Shown here: positions 1,281-40,985 of the stretch, one piece after another
How the letters are laid out: each line of letters begins with the position of its first letter
Position numbering within the stretch: the first letter of the stretch is position 1
Translations under genes and position numbers: made by a program
Source of the DNA: Hyphochytrium catenoides
Lineage: Eukaryota > Sar > Hyphochytriomycetes > Hyphochytriales > Hyphochytriaceae
Direction of reading: 5' to 3'
NCBI GenBank assembly: GCA_900088475.1
Contig: FLMG01000941.1
Coordinates: forward strand, 1 to 40,985
Length of the DNA: 40,985 nucleotides
Notes under the pieces: model-generated
What the model saw: only the letters and a program-made list of their open reading frames with translations
Databases searched by the model: none
What the model was told of the DNA's origin: nothing

Positions 1281-2282
1281 ATGATGGTGTCCTTAATGAA
1301 AGGAGCCGCTATCCTGTCAACTCTTGTGCTCTTTCACGGAGCTGCTGCACAGCAGACAGGTGGTGGAGGCCTTGCAGACTTGATTGGAAATCTGGATCTC
1401 AGTTTCAACAGCCTCGGTGACTGCGTCAACGTAACGGCGTTCGCTCCCTTCATTCACGCTATCAGCTCTCCCGCTTACACTAAAATAGTGAACAGTGTTC
1501 TCTCCATCGTAAACAAAGATGCCACCCCTGAAGAAACTCGGCTGGAACTCACGTCCTCCGAGCTTGAGGAAGTCTGCCGCTCACTCAATCCTCCAGAAGG
1601 CGAGATGGCGAAGGTTCTGAAAGCAACCGACCTCCGCGGTGCCATCTTTGGTTATGCAGCTCAAGCTCCAAACTGTAACTTAAAGGCTGTCGTCCCACTT
1701 ATTCCTACTTTCTTGGGTATGACAGAAGATGAGCTGGTTGTCGCCGTCATAAGCGCGATTAGTGACTTCAACATAGCGTACTGCACCAAGAAGGAGGGCA
1801 CTTTCTGTGGACTAACTCTTCAAGCTGCGCTGAACGACAACACTACCGCTGATGGCTTAAAGATTCAGCAAGAGCTTGATTCTCTTGTAAATGCCACAAG
1901 CCCTGTACAATGCACAGCAGTGGCGACACTGACTGCAAAGACTGGCTGCTGTTACAACGGATATGCAACCTTTGGCAGTAATGTCGGCAAGGTCTTAGAC
2001 AAGATACTCCTTACAGTGGGAAAACTCTTGACAGTGCCGCCTGAACTCTCGGATATGATCAAGGGCTACTCTAAGATGCCTCAAAACTGTGTCGATGGAA
2101 CTCAGTGCAGTCAGAAGCCTGGGTCCATCCTAGACTTCGTCAAGCAGCCTGCTGCTAACCCAACTACGGCGCCAGCTCCAACCACATCGAAACCGTCTTC
2201 GGCCCATACCGACAAAGAGCTCTCTGTGTATGGCACTTTGGCCGCCGCTGTGGCGGCAACAATAGTTGGTATGAGAGTCTAG
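1281..2282 (+). CDS. Predicted secreted, possibly GPI-anchored Cys-rich protein, 333 aa
   Basis: This is an uninterrupted frame of 333 codons. Residues 1-23 form a signal peptide with a hydrophobic core (ILSTLVLF) and an AAA-Q cleavage-like site. The mature part has about a dozen cysteines, including a CC pair in GCCYNG and a C-x7-C pair near residue 170, plus N-glycosylation sequons (NVT near 50, NTT and NAT further on). A Pro/Thr/Ser-rich linker (residues about 290-310) leads to a hydrophobic C-terminus (GTLAAAVAATIVGM) ending in RV, as expected for a GPI-attachment signal or short membrane anchor. Two adjacent ATG codons lie at the start; the first is used here. I do not recognise the family. 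Secretion is inferred from sequence architecture only. It is intronless, unlike the genes in the middle of the window. Confidence 0.75.
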   Translation: MMVSLMKGAAILSTLVLFHGAAAQQTGGGGLADLIGNLDLSFNSLGDCVNVTAFAPFIHAISSPAYTKIVNSVLSIVNKDATPEETRLELTSSELEEVCRSLNPPEGEMAKVLKATDLRGAIFGYAAQAPNCNLKAVVPLIPTFLGMTEDELVVAVISAISDFNIAYCTKKEGTFCGLTLQAALNDNTTADGLKIQQELDSLVNATSPVQCTAVATLTAKTGCCYNGYATFGSNVGKVLDKILLTVGKLLTVPPELSDMIKGYSKMPQNCVDGTQCSQKPGSILDFVKQPAANPTTAPAPTTSKPSSAHTDKELSVYGTLAAAVAATIVGMRV

Positions 2283-3816: not shown

Positions 3817-5124
3817 CTATCTCGCTCTTAGACTACGAGCTCTTTGACTTGTACCGAGAGCAGCGAAGTTGCTCTTGTTCCCAAGTGCAGCGTTGAATTG
3901 GTCTGCCAGTTGTCCCATCTGTCCGAGTTTGGCTGGGTCAGCGCCTTGGAAGCCCTTAATGCCACTGGCGACTGCGGCTGCGCCCGCAGCTTCACACTTT
4001 TGCTTGCATGCAGCGTTCACTTGCTGACAAATGCGCTGAATGGGGATCGCGGGGTTAAGAGCAACCTGCTGACCATCAAGTCCAAAGCGATTCTCAACAC
4101 CCTGTGTGGAGACCTCAAGCTGTTTGGCATTGCACTGAACTGCACCACCACTGTTGCCACTGACACCGCTGTTGCTGCTGCCTCCACCGCTGTTAGCACT
4201 GCTACCGAGAGCGGCGAAGTTGCTCTTGTTCCCAAGTGCAGCGTTGAACTGGTCAGCCAGCTGTCCCATCTGTCCAAGTTTGGCTGGGTCAGCGCCTTGA
4301 AAGCCCTTAATGCCACTGGCGACTGCGGCTGCGCCCGCAGCCTCACACGTTTGCTTGCATGCAGCGTTCACTTGCTGACAAATATTTTGAATCGGAATCG
4401 CTGGGTTTAGGGCGACTTGTCGGCCGTCAAAGCCGAAGCGATTCTCAACACCCTGCGTGGAGACCTCAAGCTGTTTGGCATTGCACTGCACCGACGAGAC
4501 TCCACCGTTGTTCACCGGCTGAGCTACTGCGGGTGCAGAAGGTGGTGCCGGCGCTGCTGTGAGGAGTGATGGTGGAGCCTGCGTAGGAAATACTGGTGCA
4601 GGAGCTGCTACTTGACCTCCACCTGATCCCACCCCAGCGTTCGACTGTAGGTCGAAGTTCGTCTGCTGATCAGGATTTTCCTGGAAGAACTGCGGCAGGT
4701 CGCAGGCAGGATCGAAGGCCTGTACAGATCCAAGGAGCTCGGGGTTCTTAGGAAGGCGGTCGCAGATCGAAGAGCACGGATTCTCGACTGCAAAGGGATT
4801 GACATTCTTCTCTGCATGGCGGAACTTGACAGCTATGTCAGTACACTGCTGGGGCAGATTGTTGGCCTTTACGAAGTTGATGATGCTGTCTGCGTGGTCT
4901 TGCTGAGCACACGCACCAGCCGCGGCGAGAAGTAGTGTGGAGATACCTTGACCAGCAAAAGTTGCAAGTTGTCCAGAGATTTCTCCAGAAACGCCGGGGG
5001 CACAGCTGCTGAGTTGATTAAGGCCAGAATTCTGCTCTTGGCCGAAGCGTCCCTCAACGACGGTTGGATGGCAGTAAAGCACACCTAGACAGCCAAGAGC
5101 GGTAGCGAGGCTACTCAGTTTCAT
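3817..5124 (-). CDS. Predicted secreted protein with duplicated 4-Cys domain, 435 aa
   Basis: This is an uninterrupted minus-strand frame of 435 codons. The N-terminus (MKLSSLATALGCLGVLYC) is a signal peptide. Residues about 40-145 form a Cys-containing N-terminal region, followed by a Gly/Pro/Ala-rich linker (about 160-210). Two nearly identical 96-residue units follow, at 212-307 and 329-424, 117 residues apart. Each has four cysteines in the order C-NAKQLE, ICQQ, ACKQ, CEAAG and ends in a helix-like GQMGQLADQFNAAL stretch. A Gly/Ser linker separates them and the tail is basic (RARSLRAR). I do not recognise the family; an extracellular role is inferred from the signal peptide. It is intronless. 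The roughly 380-bp tandem array starts about 350 bp upstream of its start codon. Confidence 0.78.
   Translation of the reverse strand: MKLSSLATALGCLGVLYCHPTVVEGRFGQEQNSGLNQLSSCAPGVSGEISGQLATFAGQGISTLLLAAAGACAQQDHADSIINFVKANNLPQQCTDIAVKFRHAEKNVNPFAVENPCSSICDRLPKNPELLGSVQAFDPACDLPQFFQENPDQQTNFDLQSNAGVGSGGGQVAAPAPVFPTQAPPSLLTAAPAPPSAPAVAQPVNNGGVSSVQCNAKQLEVSTQGVENRFGFDGRQVALNPAIPIQNICQQVNAACKQTCEAAGAAAVASGIKGFQGADPAKLGQMGQLADQFNAALGNKSNFAALGSSANSGGGSSNSGVSGNSGGAVQCNAKQLEVSTQGVENRFGLDGQQVALNPAIPIQRICQQVNAACKQKCEAAGAAAVASGIKGFQGADPAKLGQMGQLADQFNAALGNKSNFAALGTSQRARSLRAR
3852..4490 (-). repeat. Intragenic tandem duplication, 351-bp period
   Basis: The DNA at about 3852-4140 and 4204-4490 is nearly identical and encodes the two copies of the 4-Cys unit of the 435-aa secreted protein. 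The offset is 351 bp (117 codons), so the reading frame is kept. High identity at nucleotide as well as protein level points to recent duplication or gene conversion. Confidence 0.9.
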
Positions 5125-5479: not shown

Positions 5480-7375
5480 GATCCACGTGCTTCTCTTCTT
5501 CAACGCTTCACTTGCTGTTCCCCGAGCAAGACCACATAATAGTGAGGCAAAGTTTCTTCGGGGCGAGATAGTCTTGCCGGTGAGAGACATGGTATCATCC
5601 GTCGCAAGATACAGTTTCCGTCACTGGCCTCAAACCAAACGAAGGGTCATACATCGAAGAGGACTTCCTACGGAGCAAGATACTGGGTTCTCCTCTCTCG
5701 TCTGGCTTGACCTATCTCTCTAGCGTAAGTTATAGTTCTTTGTCCGTCTATATAACGAGGGTCGCTGCGGCGGTTCTTGATGATGGCGCCTTCACATTCT
5801 GGGAAGGAGAGGGAAGTGGAGGAAGGTCTATGTCTATGGATGGAGGTGGCTATTGATCCAGAAGGTGCTTCTCTTTCTTCTTCGACCGTTCACTTGCTGT
5901 TCTCTCGAGCAAGAACACACAGTGAGGCAAAGTTTCTTCTTCAGGGCGATAGTCTTGCCGGCGGCATCCCTCCTCGCAAGATACAGTTCCTGTCACTGGC
6001 CTCAAACCAAGAGAGCGGTGCCATACATAGAAGAGGACTTGCTACGGAGCAAGATCCGGGTGTCTCCTCTCTCGTCTGGCTTGACCTCTCTCTCTAGCGT
6101 AGTAAGTTATAGTTCTTTGTCCGTTTATATCACGACGGGTTTCGCCGGTTCTTGATGATGGCGCCTTCACATTCTGGGAAGGAGAGGTAAGTGGAGGAAC
6201 GTCTATCGATGGAGGTGACTATTGATCCAGCAGGTGCTTCTCTTTCTTCGTCGTCGGCCGTTCACTTGCTGTTCCCTCGACCAAGACCACACAGTGAAAC
6301 AAATTTTCTTCAGGGCGATTGTCTTGCCCGTGAGAGACATGGTATCATTCGTCGAAAGATACAGTTCCTGTCACTGGCCTCAAACAAGAGAGTGGTGTCA
6401 TACATAGATAGAACTTTCTACGCAGCAAGATACTGGTTTCTCCTTTCTCATCTGGCTTGTCCTATCTCTCTAGCGTAAGTTGTAGTTCTGTGGTGTCCGT
6501 CTATATCACGACGGGTTGCGGTGGTTCTTCTTGATGATGGCGCCTTCACATTTCTGGGAAGGAGAGGGGAGTGGAGGACGGTCTATGTCTAGGGATGGAG
6601 GTGACTATTGATCCAGAAGGTGCTTCTCTTTCTTCTTCGACCATTCACTTGCTGTTCCCTTGAGCAAGAATGCACAGAAAAGCACATCTTTCGTTGGGAC
6701 AATCGTCTTGCCTGGTGGGAGACGAGGCATTCCCTCCTCGCAAGATACAGTTCCCGCCACTGGCCTCAAAGAAAAAGGAGCTCATAAACCTAACCAAGGA
6801 CTTCCTACTGACCAAGATAATACTGGTTTCTCCTCCTCCTTCCTCTGGCCCATTGTCTATCTGTCTCTCCAGCATCATAGGTTATAGTTCTCTCCCCGTC
6901 CTTCTGCCTCACGACAGGTCACGGCGGTTCCTGAGGATCGCCGTCACATTCTGGGCCGGAGAAGGAAGTGGAGAAAGGTCGGTGAGGAGATTAGCTGATC
7001 CACCACCAGGTGGTTCTTTCTTTGGCCATTCACTTGCTGTTCCCTCGAGCAAGACCACACAGAAAGGGCACATCCTCTTCAAGACAATAGTCTTGCCCGT
7101 TGAGAGACATGGCAGTGTTCCTCCCAAGATACAGTTCCCTTCACTGACCTCAACCGAAGAAGGATGTATGCGTTAATAAGAGAGGAGGACTTCCTACTGA
7201 TGACCAAGACACTGGTTGGCTTCTCCTCCTCCCTCGCCTAGCCCACTGTCTATCTCTAGCATAAGTAGTAGTTAAGATTCCTTCCCCGTCCATCTGCATC
7301 ACGACGACGGGTCACGGCGCTTCCTGACGATCTGGCATTCTTCACACTCTGGGCTGGAGAGGGAAAGGAGGCCAG
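5480..7375. repeat. Tandem array, five units of about 380 bp
   Basis: Units start at a GATCCA-type motif at about 5480, 5855, 6224, 6610 and 6997, giving spacings of 375, 369, 386 and 387 bp. A shared block near each start reads CACTTGCTGTTCCCTCGAGC or a close variant. Later shared blocks are AGTCTTGCC, CAAGATACAGTT with CACTGGCCTCAAA, GGAGCAAGATACTGG, and GATGATGGCGCCTTCACATT. The end of a diverged unit is visible just before 5480 (about 5400-5479), and the last unit fades out near 7375. Open frames inside the units are not conserved from unit to unit (units 1 and 2 share one, 3-5 do not), so the array is probably non-coding satellite or promoter-proximal DNA. Confidence 0.9.
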
Positions 7376-9327: not shown

Positions 9328-9963
9328 ATGAAGCTTGTCACAACTGCCAGCATTTTATCTTTGATCATTCTCTCTCTCTCCTCTCTTCAACTCAGTGTCG
9401 TGGAAGCCAACGATATACCCGTCGACAGTATCGCAGGAGCTGCTGAAAGTGTACCCATCGACACAAGCACAACAGGCGTTGCCGATGAAGTTCTGCCCAT
9501 CGCCACTGCAGGTGTTGTTGATGAGGGTGCCTTGAGCACGGATGAAGCTGTACCCATTGATGATAGCACTGCAGGAGGTGATGCTGAAGCAGCTGTACCC
9601 ATCGATGCCACAACTCCAGACGCTGTTGGTGCTGAGGTCGTACCAATTGACATTAGTACAAGCGCCGCCGGAGTTGTACCCTTCGACGCTGCAACGGCTG
9701 CTGGAGGAGTAACTTCCCCAGTTGACACTGCAGCAGAAGCCGGTGTAGCCAATCAGAAGAGTGGAGGAGACAAGCTTCGTGAAAGAGTCAGGAAGGTGGC
9801 AAAGAGCTTGAAGGCCGTCGCCAAACGGCTGAAGGGACTCAAGGGCAAGCTTGTCAGGCTTAAAGGCAAACTCGGGGTTCTGAAGGCAAGAGTGAGACTG
9901 GCCAAGCTAGAGAAAAGGGCTAATAGGCTTGTAGGTAAACGCGCTCTACGTACTGGGGCCTAA
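9328..9963 (+). CDS. Secreted acidic-repeat/basic-tail protein, 211 aa
   Basis: The frame is uninterrupted and starts at ATG 9328. Residues 1-27 are a signal peptide (LSLIILSLSSL core, cleavage likely after VEA). Residues 28-145 form an acidic, Ala/Val/Thr-rich region with the motif VPID at 42, 75, 90 and 105 and variants IPVD (30), LPIA (56), VPFD (117) and PVD (131). Residues 149-209 switch abruptly to a Lys/Arg-rich, Leu/Val-spaced segment (for example KSLKAVAKRLKGLKGKLVRL) predicted to be an amphipathic cationic helix, with KR dibasic pairs. There are no cysteines. An acidic pro-region with a cationic tail resembles precursors of membrane-active or mineral-binding cationic peptides, but no family is recognised and function is inference only. 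Confidence 0.8.
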   Translation: MKLVTTASILSLIILSLSSLQLSVVEANDIPVDSIAGAAESVPIDTSTTGVADEVLPIATAGVVDEGALSTDEAVPIDDSTAGGDAEAAVPIDATTPDAVGAEVVPIDISTSAAGVVPFDAATAAGGVTSPVDTAAEAGVANQKSGGDKLRERVRKVAKSLKAVAKRLKGLKGKLVRLKGKLGVLKARVRLAKLEKRANRLVGKRALRTGA

Positions 9964-25770: not shown

Positions 25771-28560
25771 TTAGGAGTAACCCCTCCTAACCTGTGCGCG
25801 TGACATAAGGCGAGACGATGAGCCCCGGTAGACTTCCTCGTTCGTCACTGGGTCGTATCCTAGCTGAGCCATCACTTCTGCGGCGCAGGGAGCCACTCCC
25901 AGCATCGTTGTGCCCTCAACCACCTGTCAAAGGCGACGGTGAAGGAGGACCAGACAAGAGAGACAAAGAATACAATTAAGCCAAAGTCAAAGCCATGTTT
26001 ATCATCTAAGCGGGAGAGAGGGGTCGAGAACAAAGCACTAGGCGCATTGCGTGGAAGAAGCTGTAAGGAAAAGAAGCCTCAGATAGCAATTGGACATAAA
26101 TATGGCTGTCATCATAGAGTCAGCCGAATGCGTATCATCAGTGGCTTACATCTAAAGACAGTGAAAGAGGAATATTATCTCCCCACATCCCTCGCACCCA
26201 GCGCACCTCTCAGCTCTCCTCCCCATCTTGGCCATGCGGTTTTTCCCTTTTCTTTGTCCCGCTTTCTCTCTCTTTATCCAATGTGCAATGGTCTCTCAAG
26301 AAAACTAAATGCGCACGATCTTCTCTTGCCATATCTTACCTTGCCATTTTGACTGAGTGCCTTCTCCGCCTGAAGCTTTGTCTCGTACTGAATGTGAAGC
26401 CAGTTTCCAGGCCCTACCCTGTGGCGGACAACATCGCCTACCCGAGAGAGAGAGAGGATCACGATAGAAGAGAGGGAACATCGTGGAATAAGCGATTTAA
26501 GGAATCAACAAGAGCAAAATAAATGAAAGGAGAAGAAGGCGGAAAAGTTATAAGGGAGGCAGAGAAGGTGGAAGAGAGAGAGGAAGACTTACGACGACCA
26601 CTGTTGACAAGGACTTACCGAAGCTTTGAAAGCGCGTCAGGATAGCTGAGACCTGGTTAGGCTGAAAGCCAAAGACAGTAACCCAGTGAGCTCGAGAGCC
26701 GCTGGTGAGTACTCGCCCCTCTCCACCGCGTCCTGAGCGGAGAGAGAGCTCTCCTTCGAGAGAATTAGAAGGGAGAGGAGAGTCTAGCGCCATGGAGGAA
26801 ACGCCTGGTGTCACATTGTTGGTGGCTCCTAAGGTCATAAGGCTGTTATTAGGTGCTGGGGGTGCAGGGGTGCTTGCAATTTCTCCACTCTTCGCGACAC
26901 AGTCTTCCTCTTTTGTTTCTCTCACTCAAAGCGGCTGCAGCCCCACGTCATCACCGCGCTCCTCCTTCAGCCAATTCCTTCCCTTTCTTCGCCTTGTCTG
27001 TCCTTTACTCGCTCCCTCCTCAGCTTCAGAGCCCACGCATTGTGGTCCTAGCGCCGTCACACGTCGCGGAACACTACTGAGAAGATAGCTGTTTTCCTCC
27101 TTTTACTTCTCTTCCGCTCTCTCTTTCTCTCTCTCCTGCGCCATACTGAGTAGAGTCCCGATTACCTGAAGCATCCTTCACAGGTGTTCGTGGGTCATAG
27201 GCGGAAGTAATATCTGCGTCTGTCAGGAGAGAGCGGAAAGGTGGCGGTTCCATAGAATGTAAAGGTCTTCTGTCTGTCCCTTCGCTCACTGAGTCTCTCC
27301 TTTCTTTCGAAACTCCGCTAAGATCATCTCTTCCTCTTCGCCGTCTTCAATTTCAACGAAGAAAGGGTTAAAGAAGATGAAAAATGAGACGCCGAGAGAA
27401 AGAGAGACAGAAAGAGGCAAGTAAACCGATGGTAAATTAGGCAGCCTTCTGATGGAAGACGCTAGACGTTGTCGTTTGCTCTATGGCACTTCTAAGAATT
27501 CTGGCCACGGCAAACTCCTAGCCGTAGGTCTTATAAAGTAAGAGCACCGGACACCGGAGAAGGAGAACAGGAGAAGAAGAGTGTAACTCTCCTTCGGCTT
27601 ACCTAAGGTACTGCTGGTCGTATGAAGAGTTGCCCGTCGCTCCTGGCCATGGGGATTCCAGGAGAGAATTGGCAGGAGGTGCAGCAAACCCAAGGGACTC
27701 ACTTCGTCTGAGATCGCTGTTGAACGACGATTGAAGAATGTGAAGCGCAAGCAAGGAGCAGAGAGAAAAGAAAGAAGGGAAAAGGAGGCAAAGAGAGCAA
27801 CAGATATAGAGAAAGAAAGAGATTAGGTACAGGTAGGCTTGGCTAGGCTTTCGGCTCGAAGACTGAGGGTGAGACAGTGTCGGCCAAGGGCATCAGACGA
27901 AAGAGAAGGATCATGAGAGAGAGACAGACAGACAGACACAGTGTGTTGAGAAAGAGAGAGAGATTGGTCCAATCTCTCATGAACTCTCGCGAAGGAAGAC
28001 AAGCAACGGGTTTATATGGAGCCTCAATGTGCAGAATAAGCAAGGCGTGGGACAACAGGAAGAGGGACACTGGGGAATAGGCGAAGCGCCTTCAACCTCA
28101 GTCCTAACCTGTAGGAGGATCGGAGCTCAGATGAAGCGGAATAGGGCGATTTGCTCTCCTGTGCGGCCGCATACGAGGGAGGAGAGACGAGGAGAGAAGG
28201 TAGATATTCCGTCTTTGCTTGTGAGACCACGGGGCTCAGAGGAGAGGTTCGCGCTGAAGAGAAGCTTCCGCCATAGGAACTGCGCTGTGCGTTGAGGTTT
28301 GAGTAGTCAGAAGAGCGTCTGGACAGCGACCAGAAAGAGAGAGAGAGAGAGAGAGCCAAAGTAAGAGAGAGAGAGAGAGAGAGAGCACAAAAGAGAGAGA
28401 GCAAAAGAGAGAGACGGAGGTTGTCAGCTGTTATCAAAGCTGGGTGGCCTATGGAAATTTGAGGCTCAAGACCTTACCCGAAGCCGCTGTATTGTCGATC
28501 TCTCGAGGAGTCTGCGGCATACCCCACGGGGCCCGGGATTGATGTTGAAGCCGAGAACAT
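25771..28560 (-). CDS. NUP35: Nucleoporin Nup35/Nup53, 346 aa, 7 exons
   Basis: Minus-strand exons are 28560-28478, 28318-28109, 27716-27603, 27284-27166, 26882-26619, 26437-26340 and 25923-25771. They sum to 1,041 nt and all phases agree. The N-terminal 230 residues are Ser/Pro/Tyr-rich and disordered, as in Nup53 proteins, with YLPSLL and PPPFRSLL-type patches. Residues about 239-310 form the atypical RRM (MPPN) fold of this family: HWVTVFGFQPNQVSAILTRF, then FGDVVRHR, GNWLHIQYETKLQAEKALSQ, and VVEGTTMLGVAPC; the equivalent human blocks are WVTVFGFPP, NWMHIRYQSKLQARKAL and MIGVKPC. Nup35 dimerises through this domain and links Nup155 and Nup93 partners in the nuclear pore scaffold. The C-terminus (MSRAQVRRGYS) is basic, where relatives have a membrane-binding helix. 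The start is the ATG at the head of exon 1; an upstream exon is not excluded. Intron 1 and the upstream region carry long GA/CT tracts. Confidence 0.9.
28333..28416. repeat. GA microsatellite in NUP35 intron 1
   Basis: Interrupted (GA)n lies on the plus strand and reads as (CT)n in the NUP35 transcript, inside its first intron. Confidence 0.9.
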
Positions 28561-28662
28561 TCTGACGGCAGAACCAAGGCAGATGCGAAGAGAAAGAAAG
28601 ACCAGAGACAGAGAGAATCGGCAACAGGCCAGGAGACAAAGACAAGGGAAGCAAGTAAAGAC

Positions 28663-28671
28663 AGAGAGAGA

Positions 28672-28727
<56 letters not shown>
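28663..28727. repeat. GA microsatellite upstream of NUP35
   Basis: An almost pure (GA) run of about 65 bp starts about 100 bp upstream of the NUP35 start codon. Confidence 0.95.
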
Positions 28728-28730
<3 letters not shown>

Positions 28731-28940
28731 AAGAAAAGACAGAAGAAAGTAGCAGTGCGAAAAGCCGCTATTGAGGTGCTCTGGCAAGAGCTTTGTCGTC
28801 TTGTCTATCGGCTCCCGAGTGGTGTCTCAACTGGGCTATGGATTGAAGCTTTCTCTTTGTAGAGCCGGACGGGCAGGGCTTCACACTCCAGCCGGCACAT
28901 CCGCCGCCAAAATTGGGGGCCTCTCTTTCCCCTCGTTATT

Positions 28941-29130
28941 CTCTCTCTCTCTCTCCCCCTCTTTCTCCCTTGTCTATCTTATCTCCTGTCTCTCTCTCTC
29001 TCTCCCTCTCTCTCTCCCTCTCTCTCTCTCACCCTCTCTCTCTCTCACTCGCTCTCTCTATTTCTCTTATTCTCTCTCTCCCTCTCTCTCTCTCTCTTCC
29101 TGCCTCTCTCTCTCCCTCCCTCGCTCTCTC
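28941..29130. repeat. CT-rich microsatellite tract
   Basis: About 190 bp of interrupted (CT)n with TCCC interruptions lies on the plus strand, in opposite orientation to the flanking GA tracts at 28663 and 29374. Confidence 0.95.
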
Positions 29131-29373
29131 ATCACCAACCGCGAACCACAAAAATCAAAAATAAACGAACGGCAGCGACATATCTTTCCATTCTTTCAGA
29201 AGCCGAGAGTTTCCTATTTATCTTTCACTTCCATCTCAGTACATATCAATACCATGCATCATTGTTTCAAAGGTTTCATTCAATTCAATGGGAATCAGTT
29301 CTCTAACTTTCAAGTGCTCCAGGAGAAAAGAGACACATTGATCAGGCATCAGAGAGAGGTTGGAAGAGAGCCA

Positions 29374-29381
29374 CAGAGAGA

Positions 29382-29419
<38 letters not shown>

Positions 29420-29423
29420 AGAG

Positions 29424-29472
<49 letters not shown>

Positions 29473-29514
29473 GAAAGAGAGAGAAGAGAGAGAAGAGAGA
29501 GAAGAGAGAGAAAG
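29374..29514. repeat. GA-rich microsatellite tract
   Basis: About 140 bp of (GA)n with GAAGA-type interruptions lies on the plus strand. Together with the CT tract at 28941-29130 it makes a long imperfect inverted repeat with a spacer of about 240 bp. Confidence 0.95.
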
Positions 29515-31549: not shown

Positions 31550-33922
31550 TCAGGATTCTTCAATTGGGTGGTCCATCCTCGGACATTCTTCTTCATTTTT
31601 AGAAGCTTCAGTCACGGCTTGAAATGATGATATAATACTCTCTGCTGCGGTGTTCAGCTTCTCGAAACAATCAATCGGAACGGTATTTGCTCGGCTCTCG
31701 AGTCCTTCCCCCTGCTGGTTGGAAGGTAGTGAGGAGCGCACTGTTTCGGTAGCCACACGGATGCTCAGAAGTGTTCCGTGAGAGGTCTCATATAACAGGC
31801 GCCGTTGAGCCACATCAAATCTGTCTTTGTGGCGCTGAAGCTCCCTCCGTAGTAGACGGTCTGCTTCTTCCTCTTTTTCCCTTTTCTTCTCCTCGTCCTC
31901 CATTTTCTTTAGCAACTCCGCCTTCGCTTCCTCAACCAGAGTAGTGGTAATCTTCTTCAAACCTGTATCTGTATCCCTTTTCAGGTCGTCCATCTTCTTG
32001 TCCACATGCGCTTTTAGTCCGACCAATTGGTGGTTGAGAGCATCAATTCTAAGCCCATTGATATCGCTTTCAGCAATACTTGTTGTATGTTGTATGCGCT
32101 CCTCGTCGTCTTGTCTCTGAACGCCGCCATGAATCGACTCCAGAGGAGGATAGTAAGGAAGGATCATGGCCAAAGGTACCCTTGATGTCGGACAGAGTAT
32201 AACGTCGAAGGTTTGAAGACCCGTCGCTCTAATCTCGATCCTGCCAGTGAAGGGAGACCACTTACAACATGAGCCGTTCATCAGCTGAAGGCTACCATCA
32301 TCCAGGGACCTCAACTCCAGTCGGTAATCATGCCTTTCAGCAGTCCCCATTTCAAGGACAGTCGTACTCCCTTGGGGAGTTTTTTCTAGATCTTTGGCCA
32401 TTCCGTTGCTAAAGAAAACTCGAGCAAATATATTGCTCTTTTGCAGGCCGTCTTCAGCAAGTCTTCTCGCCTCCTCTATCCCAGCCTTTTTCACCTCTCC
32501 CAGCTTGGGCTTCTTAGAGGTCGCAAAGAAGGGAAGAGACAGGATTCGGCCTCCTCCTATTGGGATAGGATAACTTGCTTTCTCTTGCCGTCCTAGCTCT
32601 CTAAGACTGCCAAGGGTAATCCTTGTGCTTTCCTCGTCGAGCTCGAAGACAGGAAGACAGAGAACCTTCTCGTTTACTGTGAACGAGCAGATTTCGTCCA
32701 CAGTCCTGGATAGAAAGAAGCTAGCCCCCACGAGTGTAACGGCGTCCTCCTCGCCCGCAATCATGCCCGGTTCCCCTTCGTTGCTGCCGTTCGACGTCCA
32801 GTATATGATGGCCGACGTAGTGTTTCTCCTTTTCAGAGTATGCAAAGGGACAAAGAGCTGAGGGCTGATGAACTCAGCATCTTCAGGATAGAACCGTAGC
32901 TCCCTATTATGCTTCCTTTCACAGGCTTGAGCATGCCTCCCCATCCCTCTCGCAGACTTCTCAACATTGCAAAAGGGACATCTAACTCTTTGCTCTTGCG
33001 CCCGAGGAGTGTCCGTCGAAGCTTGTTGTCGTGGAGGAGTCGATGCACCTCTCCTCCTCTGCCGCTTGTTGCCACGGCGGCCATCAAGCTCCTGCTGTTT
33101 CCTTCGTCTCCTTCTCCTCCTGGAACCTTTATTTTCACACGAAGGAGGAGCAGTTGGGAACTCCTCTTGTCCTTCGCTGGCTGACCGTGGCTTCTCTTTA
33201 CACCAATACTTTATGTGCTTCAGCAACCCTCCTCTCCGTGGTGTAACCCTTTTAGGACAGTACTGGCATTGAACTTTACCATCAGTTTCCGGCCGGTTCT
33301 CAGACCTTGCACCAATATTGACGGGGGTCGTATTAATTTCCCGGTTCTCTTCCTCCACTCTCCCGATCACTAGTAGAGAAGCTGCGCCTCTTCCCTCGCT
33401 CCGCTGACCAGTCTCATCAAGTCCTTGAGCCCCTGGCGGCAGAAAAGGTTGAGATCTAGTAGAGGAGGGGAAGTCTTCACAATCGCTGTTCCTCCCATCG
33501 AAACTTCGGTTACTCTCAGATGCTGAAGAGATGGATGGTGCCCTAACTGATTCGATGTGGGTGTCGTCGGACGAGGCAAAGGTATCGTTGTCAGAAGCTG
33601 TTTCAAACTCCTGCTGATGAGGATAACTGAATGCTGAAACTTCTGGCTGTTGAGTTTCCACCATTGACCTCTGAGAACTTGACAAGGGGTTGCCGTTATT
33701 GCGATAGTAGTCGGGCGAAGGACAGCCTGGGGATCGCCGCCGCCGCTCGTCAATCCCCACACCACTAATGCTGTGGCCACTTCTAAACAGGACATCCTCC
33801 ATTCTCGCCATCTCTTGCCCGCGCTGTCCAGTATGTCCGAACATCCAAAATTTGGAGATAGAGCAGAACCTCCAGAAGAAAGTGACTTCAATTATTAGTA
33901 GATAGTACAAGAAGAAAAGCAC
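31550..33922 (-). CDS. CCHC zinc-finger/coiled-coil protein, up to 790 aa
   Basis: This is an uninterrupted minus-strand frame. The first 26 residues are hydrophobic (MLFFLYYLLIIEVTFFWRF) and could be a signal anchor, but M27 (MFGHTG), M38 or M41 are equally plausible starts; the Ser-rich disordered sequence that follows suits an internal start. Residues 219-241 form C-x2-C-x13-H-x4-C (CQYC...H...C) and residues 315-334 form C-x2-C-x11-H-x3-C. An Arg-run (268-291, nuclear-localisation-like) separates them. Residues about 340-600 are mixed beta-rich with no known motif. About 625-730 is a charged heptad-like coiled coil (KKMEDEEKKREKEEEADRLL). DNA or RNA binding in the nucleus is inferred from the fingers and basic run. 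A domesticated transposon protein is possible but no transposase or gag signature is visible. Confidence 0.75.
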   Translation of the reverse strand: MLFFLYYLLIIEVTFFWRFCSISKFWMFGHTGQRGQEMARMEDVLFRSGHSISGVGIDERRRRSPGCPSPDYYRNNGNPLSSSQRSMVETQQPEVSAFSYPHQQEFETASDNDTFASSDDTHIESVRAPSISSASESNRSFDGRNSDCEDFPSSTRSQPFLPPGAQGLDETGQRSEGRGAASLLVIGRVEEENREINTTPVNIGARSENRPETDGKVQCQYCPKRVTPRRGGLLKHIKYWCKEKPRSASEGQEEFPTAPPSCENKGSRRRRRRRKQQELDGRRGNKRQRRRGASTPPRQQASTDTPRAQEQRVRCPFCNVEKSARGMGRHAQACERKHNRELRFYPEDAEFISPQLFVPLHTLKRRNTTSAIIYWTSNGSNEGEPGMIAGEEDAVTLVGASFFLSRTVDEICSFTVNEKVLCLPVFELDEESTRITLGSLRELGRQEKASYPIPIGGGRILSLPFFATSKKPKLGEVKKAGIEEARRLAEDGLQKSNIFARVFFSNGMAKDLEKTPQGSTTVLEMGTAERHDYRLELRSLDDGSLQLMNGSCCKWSPFTGRIEIRATGLQTFDVILCPTSRVPLAMILPYYPPLESIHGGVQRQDDEERIQHTTSIAESDINGLRIDALNHQLVGLKAHVDKKMDDLKRDTDTGLKKITTTLVEEAKAELLKKMEDEEKKREKEEEADRLLRRELQRHKDRFDVAQRRLLYETSHGTLLSIRVATETVRSSLPSNQQGEGLESRANTVPIDCFEKLNTAAESIISSFQAVTEASKNEEECPRMDHPIEES

Positions 33923-39150: not shown

Positions 39151-40985
39151 TCAGCGTCCCCTCGGACGTGAAGCCGCCACATCTGGGATGCAGGCTGCAC
39201 AGATAGGCGAGCTGTCCGATGTCTTGCGTCCAAATCTAATGAACACTAGTCTGAGCAAAATCTGAAAGCTTGAGCTCATCACACAGCAAAGAAAGCAGAG
39301 GCCAGGTCGAAGGGTCCGCTCGCAGCACGGACAAAGGATATAAAAGACAAAGGAGACGGAGAGAGAAAGAGTGGCGTTCACCTTGGTTGGCCCTAGCAGG
39401 TTCTCCCCATCATTAGTCATATCCTTCAATACTTCGTACGTCTCCCGCTCCTTGTCTCCGCCAAACATTGATAACAAATCCTTTGCAATGTGAATTGTCT
39501 GCCCCTCTCTATCCACCGGGTAAGCCTTATCTTCCTGGTACCACTGCTCTCCCAGGCGCAGTGCCTGAAATTCAAAGTCACCGACATTGACTGTGGACTG
39601 CGTTTGGACCGCCTCAGTGACTAATTTGGCTGCCATTGCCCAGCGATCCCGATAGTACGAGCCCATCAGCCCAGCCAGTTGCTTGCTAGCATAGTCATTG
39701 ATTTCTCCTCTGCAAGAGCAGGAAGCATACGTCAGTTATTTGGGCATGAAGAAAACATACCATAGAAAGTTTGACACAGAAACCAGCAAACTGAAAAAAA
39801 GAAACTAAGCTCAAGAAGGGTCAGCGCGGAACTGACATGGAAGGCTCTGTCAGTATCTTGAGAAAGGCGTGGGGGCCAAACGAGGCGAAGAAAAGGCAAG
39901 AACCATGAAGGAAGATAGAAAGAGAGGTATCTTTAAAGCAAAGAGGATAAAGTCCGTTTGAAGGAAGAGAGAAGAAAGGCATACTTCGGTCCCCACAGAG
40001 TGATCTGATTCTTAGCGTTAAGCTGATACTGTGCCTTCTCTTCTTTTGTCCGGCCCAACGCCATCGCTGCAGCGATCATCCTTCCGACCAGAAAGTTCTC
40101 ATCAGAAGCGAGAATCCGATCCAGAGCGTCAATAAGCGAGAGCAGCTACCGAGTACGAGAGACATAGAGAGAAGAGAGAATCAAAACAGAAAAGAGAAAG
40201 AGGGCAGTGGGAGCGTGAGTGGGAAGGCAAAAAGAGGTAGTGAGGTAATGCTTATATGGCCTTTCTCTTCTTCTCACTCGCCTTACAGTCTCCTCCCTCC
40301 CGTACCTCATCTCCGAGCCTCCGCAAGATCTTGTTGCTGTTCTCTTTAGTCTTCAGGTATCGCTGATACTCGGAGCTCCAGAGCGTGTGGACATCACGAA
40401 ATAGATTAACTAGCGACTGGCGCGTCACGTCCACTATGTCGTATTGTAGCGGCCCAGGAAGAGAGGATAGACCATCTGACAAACGGACCAACCGAGAAAG
40501 AAGAGGAGTTAGAGGGAGTGCTCCACCGACCACCATATGATCAGCACGAGAGCCAGATAGTATGTAGAGTGAAAAACTACCTGCGAATGTCAGGAGTTCC
40601 TTCCACGCTTCTAAAACAAGCGTAGCATTGGCGGCGCCCCAGCCTCCTGCCGGGGTGAACCTTGGCACGACGTCTACCAGAGATGCCACTAATCCAGACG
40701 AGTAGCACCCGCGGTAGAGCTTGTGCCACGCGGAGAGGAGCAAAGTAGATGCATTGCCATACCTAAGCGAGACGGTAGCATGACCGCGGATATAAAGCAG
40801 AGCAGGGCAACCTTCACTAAGTATGGCAAGGGGTCGTGGAGGCTAAGGAGACCAACAATACACGGACTCAGAGAAACCAGGGTACAGATAATTAGGAGTG
40901 CAGAATGAGATGCCCGTGTCGGCCCCCTCAACTCTCCTGACAGTCCGACAGGGTGACCTTCTTTGCACATTGTTTCCGTTACCCT
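39151..40985 (-). CDS. NAGLU: Alpha-N-acetylglucosaminidase (GH89), 3' part; partial
   Basis: Minus-strand exons are 40762-40581, 40475-40306, 40145-39985, 39709-39382 and 39261-39151 (stop at 39151), all GT-AG and phase-consistent; upstream exons lie beyond the window. The translation follows the NAGLU C-terminal helical domain block by block: YGNAS ... SAWHKLYRGCY, VLEAWKELLTFAG, LQYDIVDVTRQSLVNLF, LLSLIDALDRILASDENFLV, AQYQLNAKNQITLWGPKGEI, NDYASKQLAGLMGSYYRDRW. Human NAGLU has the equivalent FRYDLLDLTRQAV, LTLWGP and DYANKQLAGL. The enzyme removes terminal alpha-GlcNAc (heparan sulfate in animal lysosomes). The N-terminal and catalytic domains are not in view, so activity cannot be judged. 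The last 36 codons follow an intron of 120 nt that is itself open and in frame, and do not resemble the usual C-terminus. Confidence 0.85.

What the first reader, a model, noticed from the sequence alone, without database searches (positions are those of the whole stretch)
9328..9963. Secreted precursor joining an acidic VPID-repeat region to a cationic amphipathic tail
The 211-aa product has a signal peptide, a negatively charged region with repeated VPID-type motifs, then an abrupt change to about 60 residues made largely of Lys, Arg, Leu, Val, Ala and Gly with helix-compatible spacing. Charge-balanced precursors of this design are known for cationic membrane-active peptides and for some mineral-binding peptides. 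I know of no described family with VPID spacers plus this tail, so it may be a new class of secreted effector or defence peptide.
Basis: partly seen in the sequence, partly recalled or inferred. Interest (0 to 1): 0.75.

Follow-up and report, generated by a model that had tools for sequence, protein, structure and literature searches.

The report
Secreted acidic protein with basic helix
A gene in an unidentified eukaryote seems to encode a secreted protein made of a flexible negatively charged part joined to a long, strongly positive helix of unusually regular pattern; it is probably a real gene, but its job is unproven and its general design has known parallels.

Summary
The ORF at 9328-9963 encodes 211 aa: a signal-peptide-like start (1-27), an acidic stretch with eight degenerate P-[IVF]-[D/A] units (28-144, net -20) and a basic tail (145-211, net +22). 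The tail's hydrophobic moment is not above shuffles, but it has a strict heptad: 12 consecutive a/d positions (150-189) are Leu or Val, reached by 0 of 200,000 shuffles. Its e/g positions are mostly Lys/Arg (10 of 14), as in an engineered 'K-coil'. No homologue was found by word-filtered protein search, Pfam, PDB or a search of its own 42.5-Mb genome. The orphan status is weak evidence: another protein of this genome, with clear Pfam domains, also found no relative at E <= 1e-10. Silica binding is disfavoured. A cleaved antimicrobial precursor remains a serious rival: no site lies exactly at the junction, but an Arg-Lys pair 11 residues into the tail could release most of it. I favour an intact charge-balanced secreted protein whose acidic spacer masks a polycationic helix until it meets an external polyanion or acidic partner coil (0.4, inferred). 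Organism, transcript and secretion are unverified.

The parts
9328..9963 (+). ORF open without an intron, 211 aa plus stop (P0001)
   Evidence: only match found in own genome
9328..9408 (+). Signal-peptide-like N-terminus, residues 1-27, likely cleavage after VEA
   Evidence: sequence rule (-3 V, -1 A, hydrophobic core); best 10-residue Kyte-Doolittle mean near the N-terminus 2.63; no trained predictor
9409..9759 (+). Acidic, low-complexity spacer, residues 28-144, net -20, eight P-[IVF]-[D/A] units, mostly without structure in the model
9760..9960 (+). Basic tail, residues 145-211, net +22, predicted helical (model helix 131-208)
9775..9894 (+). Strict heptad segment, residues 150-189: 12 consecutive a/d positions all Leu or Val; e/g mostly Lys/Arg

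Best explanation
The gene makes an intact, secreted, charge-segregated protein. The flexible acidic spacer (eight degenerate VPID-type units, -20) balances and masks a roughly 60-residue polycationic heptad helix (+22) while both travel through the secretory pathway. Outside the cell the helix exchanges onto something that competes with the spacer: an anionic extracellular polymer (wall or mucilage polysaccharide, extracellular nucleic acid) or an acidic partner coil. The spacer then remains as a hydrated arm. SHOWN: charge balance, repeat units, heptad register. PREDICTED by a single-sequence model: long helix and unstructured spacer. INFERRED: secretion, masking, polyanion or partner binding, absence of cleavage.
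For: Net charge -20 against +22. Heptad with L/V at 12 of 12 a/d positions from 150 to 189; Lys/Arg at 10 of 14 e/g positions between 149 and 195. A homomeric coil would repel itself, so an anionic partner or surface is expected; in the engineered IAAL E3/K3 pair the charged e/g residues give specific pairing and prevent homodimers (PMC4895442, passages). Model: one helix 131-208, pLDDT blocks 87-93 over 151-200; the spacer is mostly below or near 50. No RX[KR]R motif and no dibasic pair before residue 155. No P_proprotein match in the genome.
Against: No partner, transcript or localisation data. The helix model has no alignment behind it and low overall confidence (mean pLDDT 63.8, pTM 0.24). 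Gly at 170, 173, 180, 183 and 203 does not favour a stable coil. Hydrophobic moment not above shuffles. Arg-Lys at 155-156 could be cut and would release residues 157-211, most of the tail. The P-domain search is six-frame without intron modelling, so a convertase could be missed. A charge-balanced layout is equally expected of a cationic-peptide precursor.
Confidence: 0.4

Rival explanations
1. Charge-neutralised precursor of a cationic membrane-active peptide. The acidic spacer is a propiece that keeps the tail inactive until a protease releases it; the free helix then disrupts microbial membranes.
For: Signal peptide, acidic segment, then basic C-terminus with nearly equal opposite charge. 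An anionic prosegment holding a cationic peptide inactive is described for alpha-defensins (PMC3308943, passages). A dibasic Arg-Lys pair at 155-156, 11 residues into the tail, could serve for release.
Against: No furin RX[KR]R motif and no dibasic pair at the junction itself; the other dibasic pairs, at 166, 196 and 204, would cut the tail up. No P_proprotein match in the genome, though introns could hide one. Hydrophobic moment not above shuffles. A narrow two-in-seven hydrophobic face and +22 over 67 residues are unusual for helical antimicrobial peptides (general knowledge).
Confidence: 0.25
2. One half of a natural heterodimeric coiled coil: the basic coil tethers a flexible acidic spacer to a secreted or surface partner that carries an acidic heptad.
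For: K-coil-like register, 12 of 12 a/d L/V and 10 of 14 e/g K/R, compared with the engineered E3/K3 design (PMC4895442, passages).
Against: No acidic partner was looked for or found; only about 226 kb of the genome was read. Several Gly in the tail.
Confidence: 0.15
3. Biomineral (silica) peptide precursor in the manner of silaffins.
For: Sil1p has the same order: signal peptide, acidic domain, basic C-terminus; KXXK clusters are typical (PMC4557024, passages). The tail has five KXXK motifs.
Against: No silicon-transporter match in the genome (the one control that rang did so below the cut-off) and no chlorophyll-binding match. Only 2 Ser in the 67-residue tail and a single RXL, at 205. A regular L/V heptad rather than silaffin repeats.
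Confidence: 0.05
4. An intracellular or organellar basic protein with a mis-read N-terminus, or a spurious ORF.
For: No transcript. Codon use does not single out this frame: an antisense ORF scored higher (0.077 against 0.033).
Against: Heptad and P[IVF]D patterns not reached by shuffles; the 12 a/d Leu/Val are written with six different codons; signal-peptide-like start directly after the ATG.
Confidence: 0.15

Closest known systems
Silaffin precursor Sil1p (Cylindrotheca fusiformis)
   Same: Signal peptide, then acidic N-terminal domain, then strongly basic C-terminus with lysine clusters (PMC4557024, passages)
   Different: The tail here is a Leu/Val heptad with 2 Ser and no silaffin-type repeats; no silicon-transporter match in the genome
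Alpha-defensin-type charge-neutralised precursors
   Same: Anionic segment balancing a cationic C-terminal part (PMC3308943, passages)
   Different: No cysteines, no cleavage site exactly at the junction, a longer and more basic tail predicted helical, and an acidic part made of degenerate repeats
Engineered K-coil of the E-coil/K-coil pair
   Same: Hydrophobic a/d, lysine-rich e/g positions (PMC4895442, passages)
   Different: Natural, six heptads instead of three, degenerate, several Gly, and joined to its own acidic spacer that is not predicted helical; no partner known

Membership tests
Silaffins | Signal peptide, acidic domain, then basic C-terminus | tested here: met
   (signal peptide by rule only)
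Silaffins | KXXK lysine clusters | tested here: met
   five in the tail
Silaffins | Ser-rich phosphorylatable basic repeats with RXL-type processing sites | tested here: not met
   2 Ser in 67 tail residues; one RXL, at 205
Silaffins | Silicifying organism | tested here: inconclusive
   no Silic_transp match, six-frame search without introns; the only control that rang did so below the cut-off
Charge-neutralised cationic peptide precursor | Anionic propiece roughly balancing a cationic C-terminal part | tested here: met
   -20 against +22
Charge-neutralised cationic peptide precursor | Processing site that frees the cationic part | tested here: inconclusive
   no RX[KR]R motif; first dibasic pair 155-156, inside the tail but near its start, others at 166, 196 and 204; no P_proprotein match; other proteases not tested
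Charge-neutralised cationic peptide precursor | Membrane-active released peptide | not testable with these tools
   needs a peptide assay
K-coil-like basic coiled coil | Hydrophobic a/d over several heptads | tested here: met
   12 of 12 from 150 to 189; 0 of 200,000 shuffles
K-coil-like basic coiled coil | Basic e/g positions | tested here: met
   10 of 14 K/R between 149 and 195; the rest 2 Ala, 1 Ser, 1 Glu
K-coil-like basic coiled coil | Acidic partner coil | not tested

The most novel reading that the evidence does not exclude
A natural secreted K-coil: a self-repelling basic heptad helix that cannot pair with itself, carried with its own flexible acidic VPID-repeat mask, and which folds only on meeting an acidic partner or an anionic extracellular polymer. 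It would be an extracellular assembly module with no family in the libraries searched here.
Probability: 0.15. Interest if true: 0.6.

Novelty: new variant of a known kind. Interest (0 to 1): 0.35.

Why it matters
If confirmed, it would be a natural counterpart of an engineered basic coil, delivered with its own acidic mask, and would make charge-gated extracellular assembly testable in a poorly sampled eukaryote. If it is instead a cleaved cationic peptide, it adds one orphan to a known precursor layout.

Tried and rejected
Word-filtered protein search of the whole ORF: 7505 candidates, none at E <= 0.01. Tail region 140-211: 53 candidates, none at E <= 1. Pfam: nothing at 0.01; one weak DUF4763 match (E 0.27) when the threshold was raised to 10. 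PDB sequences: 7 at E <= 10, best 0.17. Foldseek against PDB: four vimentin chains at E 7.8, not meaningful. Viral contigs: 37 pattern matches, no relative. Power check: L026:1505-3100, a stop-to-stop reading with strong protoglobin and RGS matches, had none of its 7996 scored candidates at E <= 1e-10.

Organism identity was not settled. Triparma laevis f. inornata was considered for its size and rejected: 42,573,571 bp in 902 scaffolds (PMC7427184, whole text) against 42,489,369 bp in 1105 contigs. Table 1 of PMC10328945 (passages) lists eight assemblies, none with 1105 scaffolds. PF00504 chlorophyll-binding, PF03842 silicon transporter, PF00964 elicitin (no control rang) and PF00028 cadherin gave no match. 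All are six-frame searches without intron modelling, and each control that rang is a prokaryote. Hydrophobic-moment tests were not above shuffles. Codon-usage scoring does not prefer this frame over an antisense ORF. That the four exact VPID units differ only by synonymous changes is no evidence of selection, since they were picked for identical residues; it shows only that they are not fresh DNA copies. Of eight literature searches, one gave 0 papers and three listed nothing that I recognised, from titles and abstract starts, as this design. The others led to the papers cited.

Full report
OBSERVATION. The ORF at 9328-9963 is intact, 211 aa, on the + strand. It opens with a signal-peptide-like segment (residues 1-27, VEA before the likely cut; by rule, not by a trained predictor). 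Residues 28-144 are acidic (net -20, pI 2.7) and residues 145-211 basic (net +22, pI 12.8). There are eight P-[IVF]-[D/A] sites, spaced 12 to 19 aa. Seven are P[IVF]D and four exact VPID; 0 of 100,000 composition shuffles of the acidic part reached either count.

THE TAIL. The hydrophobic moment is not exceptional. Shuffle fractions on 149-208 were 0.20 for the best 18-residue window, 0.16 for the mean window, 0.79 for the whole stretch at 100 degrees and 0.18 at the best angle. On 149-190, 3251 of 20,000 shuffles reached the observed moment. The heptad pattern is exceptional: 12 consecutive a/d positions from 150 to 189 are all Leu or Val, written with six different codons, and 0 of 200,000 shuffles reached such a run in any of seven phases. 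I noticed the pattern by eye before testing it. At e and g, 10 of 14 residues between 149 and 195 are Lys or Arg. AlphaFold2 on the single sequence gives one long helix, 131-208, which begins inside the end of the spacer. Apart from short helices at 32-37 and 121-124 the rest of the spacer has no structure in the model. Mean pLDDT is 63.8 and pTM 0.24, with blocks of 87-93 over 151-200.

IS IT A GENE? The patterns above are hard to explain without coding. Codon usage exceeds a synonymous null (0 of 2000), but the reference set was three unproven window ORFs, and an antisense ORF scored higher, so that test is not decisive. The four exact VPID units carry synonymous differences; since they were picked for identical residues this shows only that they are not fresh DNA duplicates. 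In a local control of 103 ATG ORFs of at least 120 aa from 226,365 non-N bases (window plus 24 sampled stretches), P0001 had the longest heptad run (12; next 9). It ranked third of 103 for charge segregation. Of the four ORFs with a segregation index above 2.5 it alone had a hydrophobic N-terminus.

RELATIVES. In the own genome (42,489,369 bases, 1105 contigs) the whole ORF, the tail alone and the first 143 residues each match only themselves. The tool scores only its best first-look candidates (one or two here), so a divergent low-complexity copy could be missed. The same search found paralogues at 29-31% identity for one neighbouring gene and 58-77% for another. No relative was found in the word-filtered search of about 5.8 billion proteins, Pfam at 0.01, PDB (best E 0.17) or viral contigs. 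This is weak evidence for novelty: L026:1505-3100, with clear protoglobin and RGS matches, also had none of 7996 scored candidates at E <= 1e-10, which suggests that the collection does not cover this lineage.

ORGANISM. Not identified. No chlorophyll-binding, silicon-transporter, elicitin or cadherin match. Each is a six-frame search without intron modelling, and no control rang for elicitin. The SSU search did not complete.

MECHANISM. The best reading is an intact secreted charge-balanced protein whose acidic spacer masks a polycationic heptad helix until it meets an external polyanion or acidic coil. Repulsion at e/g makes self-pairing unlikely; in the engineered E3/K3 pair, charged e/g residues give specific pairing and prevent homodimers (PMC4895442, passages). 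The main alternative, a precursor of a membrane-active peptide, has a precedent in the anionic prosegments of alpha-defensins (PMC3308943, passages). Against it: no furin motif, no dibasic pair at the junction itself and no P_proprotein match in the genome. For it: an Arg-Lys pair at 155-156 could release residues 157-211, most of the tail. A silaffin-like role shares the order of parts with Sil1p (PMC4557024, passages) and has five KXXK motifs, but lacks Ser-rich repeats and any silicon-transporter match.

CONTEXT. Two neighbours within about 8 kb also look secreted (by eye) and belong to small families of this genome: 1281-2282 (+), three members found, and 3817-5124 (-), with a 74-77% paralogue on C718 and a partial relative on C896.

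VERDICT. A probably real and unusual design for which no second copy was found; its function is inferred. New variant of a known kind; interest 0.35. 

Noticed in passing
window 1281-2282 (+): Probable secreted Cys-rich protein with a hydrophobic C-terminus (GPI-like by eye); two further genome matches at 29 and 31% identity on C848 and C325 with conserved cysteines; no Pfam match at 0.01.
   Followed up: partly
window 3817-5124 (-): Probable secreted protein with two long near-identical repeats (by eye); paralogue at 74-77% on C718 and a partial relative at 58% on C896.
   Followed up: partly
window 5494-6770: Tandem array of a 372-base unit, 3.4 copies, 81% match.
   Followed up: no
window 39151-40842 (-): Two open frames matching the NAGLU C-terminal domain (PF12972, E 1.8e-16 and 8.3e-9).
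   Followed up: no
window 31550-33922 (-): 790-aa ORF (GTG start as listed) with only weak zinc-finger-like matches below Pfam cut-offs.
   Followed up: no
L026:1505-3100 (+): One open frame joining a protoglobin domain to an RGS domain; none of 7996 scored candidates at E <= 1e-10.
   Followed up: partly
L011:72-2069 (+): One open frame with two methyltransferase regions, the second matching Methyltransf_9/DUF1698 at E 1e-94; it looks like a CmoA-CmoB type fusion (name recalled, not tested).
   Followed up: no
window 28332-29511; L003, L016 and others: Long CT/GA dinucleotide runs, some apparently in introns (by eye).
   Followed up: no
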